A DNA stretch of 64,000 nt from Cloeon dipterum (taxonomy: Eukaryota; Arthropoda; Insecta; Ephemeroptera; Baetidae). The notes beneath the pieces were generated by a model, which saw only the letters and a program-made list of their open reading frames with translations, was not told the DNA's origin and made no database searches. Below are positions 9,321 through 17,891 of this stretch, piece after piece; position 1 is the stretch's first letter, and every line of letters begins with the position of its first letter. Position numbers and translations under genes: made by a program. The stretch spans positions 11,966,001 through 12,030,000 of the forward strand of contig NC_088786.1 in the NCBI RefSeq assembly GCF_949628265.1, written 5' to 3'.

Positions 9321-12300
9321 TCACGCAATAGAATCGTAGTCGTCACCAACAAAATTGTAGCAGTTATCAACGTGGTCTTGCAAATCACATTGGAGGAAAG
9401 AAACAAAACACATTGGGCATTCAACAATCAACTCATCCTGCAAAATATTCTACATTGAATTAACACGTCAACTGAAAAAAATTTACTTTCACACAAATCT
9501 CTCATTACCTGTGGCAGTTGTTGTCTGACAATATCTTCAAGTAGCTGTTGTTGGATACCCATTTCCATATCGTTTTCCTCTTCATTGACCTGAGCGATTT
9601 CCATGTTTGGATTTATTCTCCTTGGCTAAAATTTTGGTAGTTAATAATAAATATTTATTTTTTTGTGAATGCGCGGGTAGTACCACTGGCACTGGATGGT
9701 TATTGTCTCTGCTCAATGGAACTTCCTGGGCATCTTCGTAAACCTAGTGCATTTTTATACAATTTTCTATCATTTAAAGTTAGATGATTATTTACCTCTG
9801 GGTCCCCATTTTCTTCTTGACTGACACGAGCGCTAAAAAATTGTTCCTCAGCAATTACTTGAAGGAGGTGCAGCACATCATGGTTGTTTTCCTGATTTCT
9901 GCAGAAATAGTATTATTAATAATGTTAATATCTCCCCAAAAATACAGCACATCGAATCCGGTACGCCTTGCTTCAGCAAAGTGTCAGCTTCTTCAATCAG
10001 GCACTGATGTTCTGTCATGACGGCTCTCAATTTTTCTTCAAGCGCCTCCTTATTGCTCACTCCTGTGTTCTTGTCTAGTTCAGCCCTGTAGGCCTCGACC
10101 TTTAAGCCACACCATATCTGAAACATATTATAATCATAATAAAATAGCATTAAAACCAGCACAAACATATATATCATACCTGTTTCTCAAGGGTTCCGAC
10201 GCGCATCTCTTCTTGTTCTATCTTTTTCTCCGCATCATTTAATTTCAATTTTAGCTGGAAAAAGTGTTGTTTTTAAACATGAGCAAAATAATTTATAAAT
10301 CTTATTTTGTACTTCTTGTATGGTTGCTTCCATTTGTTTCAGCACAGAGCTCCCTTTCTGCTCAGTCTTTTCTCTAGATGCCAACAGCCCTGTCAGCTTT
10401 GCGTTTTCGTTCTCTGCGTCGGTCAATTTACTCTTTTCAAGAGTCAATGAAGTGTCCTTTTCCTCCAGATTTTTCTGCATCTATTTTGTTTTCAAATTTG
10501 CATCTTGTTTAGCATTTACTAAAAATTTAAATGTTACTTCATTGATGGAATCATGCAGAATTTTCATTTCCTCGTCTTTGTGCTGCATGCTTCTTGTTTT
10601 ATCATCAAGCTCCATTTTCTTCTGCTTATTTTTTTCAACCAGCTGCAGAAGTATTTTTTACTAAACCACTTAAATTTTATAGTTATAATAACAAGGACAA
10701 GTTCGTTTAATTCTCACTCTGCTATAAAATATGCACCTAAATATTATATTAGTTCTCTTACTTGACTGACAAGTTCTTTCTCTAGTATTTTCTGTTGGCT
10801 GAGGTTGAACTCAAGTCCCTCAACTTGGCTCATCAGCTATAGAAAAAATCAGAAGTTTTTTTAAATAGATAATTGGAATATTTTTTTGAAGATTTTACTT
10901 TCAATTTGTCCGACTCCAATTCTTGAATTTTTTCACTCTCCCTGTCCAACTGCTGGTTGAACTTAGACTCTGCCTCAGATAATTTTTGTTTTAATGTCTC
11001 GTCCTCTTGTGTCTTCTGTTGGTTGAGGTTTGACTCCAGTTCATCGACTTGGCTCATCAGCTAGGAAAAATCATACATAGGCTCATTAAATAAATAATTG
11101 GAATATTTTTTTTGAACATTTTACTTTCAATTTGTCCGACTCCAATTCTTGAATTTTTTCATTCTCCTTGACCATCTGCTGGTTGAACTTAGACTCTGCC
11201 TCAGACATATCTTTTTTCAATATCTCCAGCTGCATGAGCATTATGTAAAAATAATATTTTGCTTAGCTTGATACTTTCCCCCAAATGTGTATTTTGTTTA
11301 CCTGGCTCAAGTCAGACCGAGCCGCAGACAGTTCGACCTCCAAAATTTCATTTTTGGCACAAAGCTGAAAGTCAATATATTTATTATATGTAGTTTTTTC
11401 ATGTTTTATTATTAATTTAATATATAATATAGTGATTTTATTTCCGCTACTTTTGATTGTTCCTGTCAGCCACCTGTTAATTCTTTAAATTTAATTTTTG
11501 CTTCAATGTGTCTCGTTTTCACTTTTCAACTGAAAAACAAATTATTAAACGATAGCTTTGAGACAAAAGGGATCAACATTTTCTATGCTGTGGAGAGATG
11601 TTAATGCCAATAATATATAAGCAGAAGAATTTATATAATTATCTTAATTTCAACTGAAATTTTCCTATATCCTATTTAACGAGAAGTCATCTATACTTCT
11701 TTGATGTTGGATTCCAGTCTGTCAACTTGTTCTTTCTCCTTGTTCTCCTGCTTGCTGATTTTTGCCTCTGCCTCAATCACTTCTCTTTTCAATGCCTCAT
11801 TTTCGCCCTTCAACTGTAAATTTTTCATGGTATTACTGTAAATAAATATTTTATCATTCATTTTTTTTATAATTTACATTCATCATCTCCTCGTTTATTC
11901 TTGTCCAATTCTGACCGTTCGCCTTGAATGCAGGGGCGAGTTCCTGGTAAGAATACTCTAGAAATTTTCTTTGATCCTCAAGGAGCTGCTGCATAGAGTC
12001 TGAAATTTGGCAATCTTTCTGATTAAAATCATAAAAATATAAGGATAGTATCGACACGGAATTTTTTTCTGGCTTCTATAATTCATCACCTCTCATTTTA
12101 ATATCTTTTTCCACGATGACCTTGTGGAGCTGCTCGCGAATCTCACTCCCGCCATGTCCCATCATTTCATCCATATCAATGAAGTCATCTAGGTGGTCAT
12201 AGTCGGGATCCTGACGGCAAGATAAATGCCATAATTATTTTCTCTCGTTCTCTTTTTTTTACTTTTGTCACAAATTTATTTCTAACCTCTTCTAAAATAC

Positions 12301-13849: not shown

Positions 13850-13855
13850 TTTATT
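13850..13855 (-). terminator. Poly(A) signal downstream of both zinc-finger exons of the kenny-like gene
   Basis: Minus-strand AATAAA lies about 200 bases after the stop of the spare zinc-finger exon (14058). No AATAAA or ATTAAA is seen on the minus strand between the two zinc-finger exons (14151-14377), so this signal may serve both terminal exons. Confidence 0.5.
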
Positions 13856-14057: not shown

Positions 14058-14150
14058 CTATGGATACATGTCCTGATCCAAGCAGAGGTTAACATGGTTT
14101 TCCAGAGGTTGCAAACTGTTGAACACAAAGTAGCACTTGGGACACTCATA
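14058..14150 (-). CDS. Spare terminal CCHC zinc-finger exon (alternative last exon of kenny-like gene)
   Basis: A 93-base block directly after a polypyrimidine tract and CAG acceptor encodes 30 residues and a TAG. It begins Y-E-C-P-K-C and has the pattern C-x2-C-x12-H-x3-C, the same spacing as the annotated terminal exon of the upstream gene 230 bases away. The phase is 0, as required to replace the exon 14491-14378. It is intact: no stop, and all four metal ligands are present. The likely role is a mutually exclusive last exon giving a protein with a different zinc finger and a tail ending D-M-Y-P. A relic of a further gene duplication is the alternative. Confidence 0.7.
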   Translation of the reverse strand, partial: YECPKCYFVFNSLQPLENHVNLCLDQDMYP

Positions 14151-14377
14151 CTGGAAAATATTAGATTGTATTAATGCAACAAGAAGTTAATCTTTTTAGG
14201 TTAAGGAATTTTGGATTTAGTTAAATGCTGATTAACGAGACGGTAACCATTATCGGTACGAGTGTTTCCATCGGTGAATGAACAATAACAAACTAACACA
14301 CACAGCAAAGGATTAGTAAAAATGAAAGCGATTAGACGTTAATGATGTTAGAATGAGCATTGATGAATGCTTATGCA

Positions 14378-17300
14378 TTAAAGCTCCAAGCAAGTCTCAA
14401 CGTGATATTGAAGTGGCTCGACTTCTCGAAATGCAGCATTGCACTTTGGACAGAAGAACCGTTTTGGCTCTGGAACTTCTTCCTCAAAAGGCTGTGACAA
14501 AGGTTAGAGTTTGAGCTGAACTTCAGAAAACTGCTATGTCATAAGTATGATTTAAACAATTTGTGAATGAATTGAAAAATAAGGCAAAGCTAATGAAAAT
14601 TTATTTGAAGCACCTTTGATCTTATATGAAAGGAAATTAATATTGAAAATACTACCTTTGGTTGTTCTCGCGGTTGCTCGAGAGCATCACTCAACCAATG
14701 ACTTCTTGGTCTTCCTATTGCTGCGATTGTGTTGTAGTTGGTGTGCTGAGTTTTGGGGTTGACGCTGATGGATAAAAAGTGTTAATTTTACCCCTGACGG
14801 CAGAAATGGGTATTAAATACTTTGACGCTGATGCGGTAGGAGGGAGCTGAGTTGGTTGTCTCTTCAGAGCCTCCAGTTCAGCAGCCAAATGCTCCTTTTC
14901 CTGTTGAACAGCCAGCAACTCATCGGCCAACTTCTCCTTGTCTGCGGCCAGCTTCTCCCGCGACTCCCGCTCCTCGTTGAAGTCCATTTTGTACACTTCA
15001 GCCTAGGAAAATAAATAATTGCCAAATTTATAGATCAGATCAAGATTGCCTCTCAGTTAAGCCCAGATTTCTGGCAGTGTTTTATTATCTGCATACCAAT
15101 CTATAAGGACAATTAAAAATCCTTCGCATCAATTGTTCATTTTAATTTTTCAACAGTTTGTTTGGTCGGCTATGACGAGGGCTATTAATAAATCGAGGGC
15201 AGAACAATGGAACCAGGTTACATGGAAGAAAAGAGCGCACGGCGTCATAAAGGTGTCCAGAAAAAATCAATTAATTTTTTTTAGTGTTCGGAACGTTACA
15301 AGTCAAGCCAGAAGAGAATTATCAGCTGGTGCTTTATTATAATTACATCATAAATATAAATAACACATAAAAATTTCATGATAATATGGAAGAGAATTAT
15401 AAAAAGTAATAATATGAATTAGCAGTAGTTTTTTCTTATATGAGAGAAGCAGAGCAGGAGACTCTTCAACAGATACCATAATATATTAAACGTTTTAAAT
15501 TAATTGATCTAATAAACACCTCTCTAAAAACATCTCTATCAAACCAATTACTGGTTAATTTTAAGAGGAAAGATGCTGAAAGCGTAGTTATTAATGAACC
15601 CTGATTTCATTTTTTAAAAGAGCAAGGAAAAAAGGCGTGTAAACTAACACAAATTTTATTTCAAAGTAAAATGAATAAAATATTTTTGATTATAACCATA
15701 ACCTCTCATACAATTCAGACGAATTCATCTTTGGTTCAAATTGTACCTGTGCTTGCAGAGCGTCAACACTCTGTTCTAGGGTTTTCATTCGCTGCAGCAT
15801 GGTCGCAGCTTCAGCCTCTTTCTGGTTGGACTTGGTCTCCGCCTGCGACACCCTCAGTTCCATTTGCGCGAGTTGCGAGTCCTTCTGTGCAATCAAGCTA
15901 TTTTTCTTCTCAAGGGTTCTCTCCTTTTCCTCCAGTACATCTTTCATTTGCAGAATTTCCGCAATCTTATGATCAAGCTGCTCTTTGAACTCTTTGCTCT
16001 GCTCACTCTTCTGTTGTGCAGCCAACTCAGCAATTTCATTTTCATTCTCTCTCAGTCGGGCATGCAACTGTGATACAATCCGATCCTTCACGTTCAGCCT
16101 GCCCTCCATCTCCTGGAGCTGCTCTTTAGCCCCTTCCAACTGTTTTTCAAGCTCCATAAATGAAGCTGACGAAGGAGCAGGAGCTGCAGGTTGTTCTGGT
16201 TCAGGCTTCTTCTGCAAGATATTGCGGTAAGTAAATTAATTCCTTATAAAAAAAAAATTGGAGGCTCACGTTTTTCACATCATTACTGAGAGACATGAAT
16301 TCCTCAAGCAGGGTTTGGAAATCACTGCCAAGTCTGCCTAACTGCTGACTTGCTTCCTCCATCTGCTGCCTGTAAAAATTGATTGATTTAATTGAAAATT
16401 TTATATATTATAATCTATATTTTAATTTAATTATATTTCTTTCATAAGGTCATTGTCAAGAGCAATGTTTTTAAAGTAAAAATACATTCCGATTGATAGA
16501 ACATTGTGTCTCTAAGGCACTTTAGAGCAGAAAATTACCTTTGGCCCGCGCTGCTTTTCTGCGCTTCTCTCAGACTTAAAGAAATCATCTCCAGTAAAGT
16601 TCCCATCTCGGACAATCCTGCTGAAGAGCCTGGCAGTTTTGCTCGTGTCTCATCAAGCCAGTTGTAAACAGTGACAAAGCTGACAAAAAGTCAAGTTTAA
16701 CCATCAATATATTTTGAGATATTAAAAACATACCTTGTAACTTGTTGTTCAAGGACCTTGAAGGAATTCATAATAGACTCATCATATTTGTCAACAGCAG
16801 CGTAAAATTTCTTCAGCTTGTCCTCAGGATGTGGAAGATCCTACACATCAAGCAAGTGAAAACCTTTAAATTGTATTGTAATATTAATTATAACCTTTTC
16901 TTTGTTAGTTGTTGTTTTTGGCACATCATGTGACACCATCACAAAACCATCAGCCTGCATTTCAGCCAGCTCTTGCTGCAGCAAATTCACTCTGTGTTGC
17001 AGCTCTTCCTTCTCCAACATTTCTGACAAGCGCTTGTCAGCCAACTTCTTTATCCTGATCTCCGCCTTTTCCAGGGCTGCATTCACATCTTGCGCTTGGC
17101 AACATTGTTTTTCCAGTTGAGCCACCCTCTGTTTCGACAACTCATTCTCCTATGCCATTCAAAATATTAAGGATTACTCAAACTATGAATTAAAATTTAC
17201 TGCTACCTTCAAAACTTCCTGTTGGCCCTCCAAGATTGCATCAAGCTTCTGCAATTTCGTCTTAAGTTCCTGGTTTTCAGAGAGGATATTTTCTTGGCTC

Positions 17301-17888
17301 TGCAGTTTTTTTAAGAGTCCCTCTTTTTCTGTCTTCAGCTGCGAGTCAAAGGTTGAACTTACTATTGTTGCTAGTTTTTTAAAATCCAAAAAGATCTAAC
17401 CTTCACGATGAGCAACTTCATTTCTTCAAATTTATCTTTATGACTTTTATGAACTTGAAGAACCTCCTCATGCCACTTGGAAAGAGTGTCACACTGCTGC
17501 TTCATGGCCAAATTGTTCTGCTGCAGGACCTCTGCAATTTACACAATTAATTAGAAAGGAACATTGCATATGAATAAATATTTATTCCAAAACCTTTCAG
17601 TTCCGCATTTTCCTTCATTATAACTTCCAACTTTTTCGGCAAATCCTCTGGATCCAGACTCAGAGAGGAGTTCTGAGGGAAAAAATAACATCAGGGCACT
17701 ATATTCCCCTAGAAAAAAATCCGTACTTGTGGTACACTGGTCAAGCTTGACATGTTACTTGTGGTTGGTTCATCCACGATGATGAAAGATGACAGACTGT
17801 CAGAATTATTGCTGTTCATGCTTCCAGCGTTCAGTGATAACTGCTGGTTGCTTTGGCCATTAACCAAAGATGAATTTGGTTTCACCAT
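14378..17888 (-). CDS. key: Kenny/NEMO-optineurin family ubiquitin-binding adaptor (IKK-gamma-like)
   Basis: Family members bind Met1/Lys63 ubiquitin chains and act as IKK scaffolds (Imd/NF-kB signalling) or autophagy receptors. Exons: 17888-17727, 17672-17594, 17531-17401, 17338-17207, 17149-16895, 16840-16734, 16679-16539, 16369-16270, 16211-15747, 15002-14821, 14764-14656, 14491-14378; total 658 aa. The first coding exon follows a spliced leader (acceptor at 17894-17892). An early segment (about residues 55-120: KENAELKEVLQQNN...MKQQC) matches the kinase-binding NEMO N-terminal region. Long coiled coils follow. The UBAN motif starts at about 525 (AEVYKMDFNEERESREKL) with Y528, D531 and F532 conserved. 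The C-terminal zinc finger is C635-x2-C638-x12-H651-x3-C655. Two LIR-like motifs are present: S-S-F-I-I-V (33-38) and D-G-F-V-M-V (235-240). At 658 aa it is longer than Drosophila Kenny. The choice between the NEMO and optineurin names is not settled by sequence alone. Confidence 0.88.
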
Positions 17889-17891
17889 GAC

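What the first reader, a model, noticed from the sequence alone, without database searches (positions are those of the whole stretch)
14058..14491. Duplicated terminal zinc-finger exon giving a choice of two CCHC fingers
Two intact last exons, each phase 0, each with its own acceptor and stop and identical C-x2-C-x12-H-x3-C spacing, lie 227 bases apart. The first has no AATAAA or ATTAAA of its own. Alternative use would swap the zinc finger and C-terminal tail of the adaptor. The NEMO and optineurin zinc fingers affect ubiquitin or cargo preference, so a splice-controlled switch would be a new regulatory layer.
Basis: partly seen in the sequence, partly recalled or inferred. Interest (0 to 1): 0.7.

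Follow-up and report, generated by a model that had tools for sequence, protein, structure and literature searches.

The report
Swappable zinc-finger ends of one gene
An animal gene for a ubiquitin-reading immune or autophagy adaptor appears to carry two diverged copies of its final zinc-finger exon, so cells could finish the protein with either finger; selection seems to have kept both, but no RNA evidence was available to show that the second is used.

The parts
14656..17891 (-). Gene A: 11 modelled upstream coding exons of a NEMO/optineurin/Kenny-type adaptor (ATG at 17888; any 5' UTR exon not sought), phase-0 donor after 14656
   Evidence: Exon joins, all GT-AG, give one open frame; Pfam CC2-LZ E 1.5e-12 and NEMO E 4.3e-6, both over cut-off
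14821..15002 (-). Exon with the UBAN ubiquitin-binding core (FNEERESRE)
   Evidence: F-x3-R-x2-R-E present; the four residues are named for NEMO and Kenny in PMC6462001 (passages)
14378..14491 (-). [not shown]
   Evidence: acceptor scores above 22 of 26 modelled acceptors; NEMO finger 5aay E 0.005, though several ordinary C2H2 proteins rank higher
14151..14377 (-). [not shown]
14058..14150 (-). [not shown]
   Evidence: acceptor scores above 18 of 26; codon-position constraint
13850..13855 (-). First canonical poly(A) signal (AATAAA) downstream of both exons, probably shared

Best explanation
[not shown]
Confidence: 0.66

Rival explanations
1. [not shown]
Against: Simulated neutral copies of matched identity did not reproduce the open frame, ligands and second-over-third-position excess (0 of 11,580). 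Acceptor and phase are intact.
Confidence: 0.2
2. [not shown]
For: Gene B starts 1.6 kb downstream on the same strand and ends in a related finger.
Confidence: 0.06
3. [not shown]
For: The donor scores 4.6, inside the range of modelled donors of genes A and B; the 15-nt piece keeps phase 0.
Against: It scores above only 3 of the 26 donors, and direct joining needs no such step.
Confidence: 0.05

Closest known systems
NEMO/IKK-gamma and its Drosophila homologue Kenny
   Same: N-terminal NEMO domain, CC2-LZ/UBAN with the F-x3-R-x2-R-E core, C-terminal CCHC finger; Kenny also has an N-terminal LIR (PMC5668318, passages), and gene A has three matches to the relaxed LIR pattern (pattern recalled)
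   Different: A single finger is the form I know (recalled). [quoted passage not shown] no finger swap is described in those passages
Optineurin
   Different: The UBAN stretch matches NEMO structures better (best E 1.1e-6) than optineurin (best E 6.7e-4)
Broad-Complex/lola-type insect genes
   Different: Those are BTB transcription factors with DNA-binding fingers (recalled); here the finger would read ubiquitin or a protein partner

Membership tests
NEMO/optineurin/Kenny adaptors | N-terminal NEMO domain (PF11577) | tested here: met
   E 4.3e-6, 27.1 bits against cut-off 23.2 on the joined protein
NEMO/optineurin/Kenny adaptors | CC2-LZ/UBAN (PF16516) with F-x3-R-x2-R-E | tested here: met
   E 1.5e-12, 48.3 bits against cut-off 35.3; motif present
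[not shown]
   C-x2-C-x12-H-x3-C; 5aay NEMO E 0.005. Caveat: the Pfam finger model PF18414 stays below its cut-off of 25.6 bits (19.3 bits for the tail alone, 15.3 for the whole protein)
[not shown]
   Spacing and ligands met; optineurin 5aaz E 0.14 and NEMO 5aay E 0.19; PF18414 E 0.045, below cut-off; model finger-like but fold matches not significant
NEMO/optineurin/Kenny adaptors | Binds K63/M1 ubiquitin chains or IKK | not testable with these tools
   Needs binding assays
Alternative terminal exons | Two acceptors in phase with one donor, mutually exclusive products | tested here: met
Alternative terminal exons | Both junctions present in RNA | not testable with these tools
   No RNA data

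The most novel reading that the evidence does not exclude
A regulated 3' splice-site switch gives the sole NEMO/optineurin-type adaptor of this animal either of two ubiquitin-reading fingers on the same UBAN body, so one gene alternates between chain or cargo preferences (for example NF-kappa-B signalling versus autophagy), doing by splicing what vertebrates do with separate NEMO and optineurin genes.
Probability: 0.2. Interest if true: 0.75.

Novelty: new variant of a known kind. Interest (0 to 1): 0.5.

Why it matters
NEMO's UBAN and terminal finger are cited as paired ubiquitin-binding domains (PMC7226360, passages). If a cell can exchange that finger by splicing, ubiquitin-signal decoding could be tuned without changing the rest of the scaffold. 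It would also give a natural pair of fingers on one body for testing what the finger contributes. No description of such a swap appeared in the titles and abstract openings listed by seven searches of the open-access library, which showed 20 of 23, 20 of 42, 3 of 3, 20 of 162, 12 of 87, 10 of 85 and 10 of 45 papers; the library lacks most subscription papers.

Tried and rejected

Gene B as a second NEMO-type gene: not supported. It has no Pfam CC2-LZ or NEMO match at E up to 1 and no F-x3-R-x2-R-E. It may still be a much diverged paralogue.

Other NEMO/optineurin-type genes in the genome: none found. CC2-LZ gave 1 match (this gene, over cut-off), NEMO 1 match (this gene, exon fragment, 20.2 bits, below cut-off) and the UBAN exon 1 match at E up to 0.01 (this gene). 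The search is exon by exon and may miss split domains.

Relatives elsewhere: 41 stretches in genome contigs and 10 in viral contigs matched a pattern, none confirmed.

Full report
What is there. On the minus strand, 11 exons modelled by hand (17891-14656) join into one open frame with GT-AG borders. The protein has the NEMO domain and the CC2-LZ domain over Pfam's cut-offs and the ubiquitin-binding core F-x3-R-x2-R-E, whose residues are named for human NEMO and Drosophila Kenny in PMC6462001 (passages read). Exon-by-exon searches of the 190-Mb genome found CC2-LZ only here (1 match, over cut-off), the NEMO domain only here (1 match, below cut-off as an exon fragment) and this UBAN exon only here at E up to 0.01. 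It is therefore probably this animal's Kenny/NEMO-type adaptor. In PDB sequence searches the UBAN matches NEMO (best E 1.1e-6) better than optineurin (best E 6.7e-4).

What is known. PMC2778955 (2009; [quoted passage not shown] The listings showed no description of a finger swap in this family; most of those listings were partial and the library lacks most subscription papers. Swapping C-terminal zinc fingers by alternative 3' exons is known for insect transcription factors such as Broad (recalled; only a listing seen). So this is a new variant of a known kind.

Organism and surroundings. Neighbouring genes encode a HECT ubiquitin ligase, a DEAD-box helicase and Vps52 (Pfam matches).

Noticed in passing
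window 12436-9321 (-): Gene B: 16 modelled exons, 608 aa, coiled-coil-like, with its own terminal finger exon 9437-9321 (C-x2-C-x11-H-x3-C) and no Pfam match over cut-off; perhaps a highly diverged tandem paralogue of gene A.
   Followed up: partly
window 11529-11474 (-): Inside gene B an exon-like stretch between a plausible acceptor and donor has an in-frame stop ending at 11503; the open reading leaves it out, so it may be a decayed exon or a regulated poison exon.
   Followed up: no
window 11229-10899 (-): Two gene B exons (11229-11125 and 11060-10899) repeat SEAESKFNQQ...IQELESDKLK, apparently a recent duplication of a coiled-coil exon.
   Followed up: no
gene A residues 33, 235, 351: Three matches to the relaxed LIR pattern (recalled), against 0.5 expected in shuffles: possible Atg8/LC3 binding, as in Kenny and optineurin.
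   Followed up: partly
[not shown]
   Followed up: no
own genome, whole: No exact (TTAGG)6 in 190 Mb on either strand; telomeres may be missing from the assembly or have another repeat.
   Followed up: no
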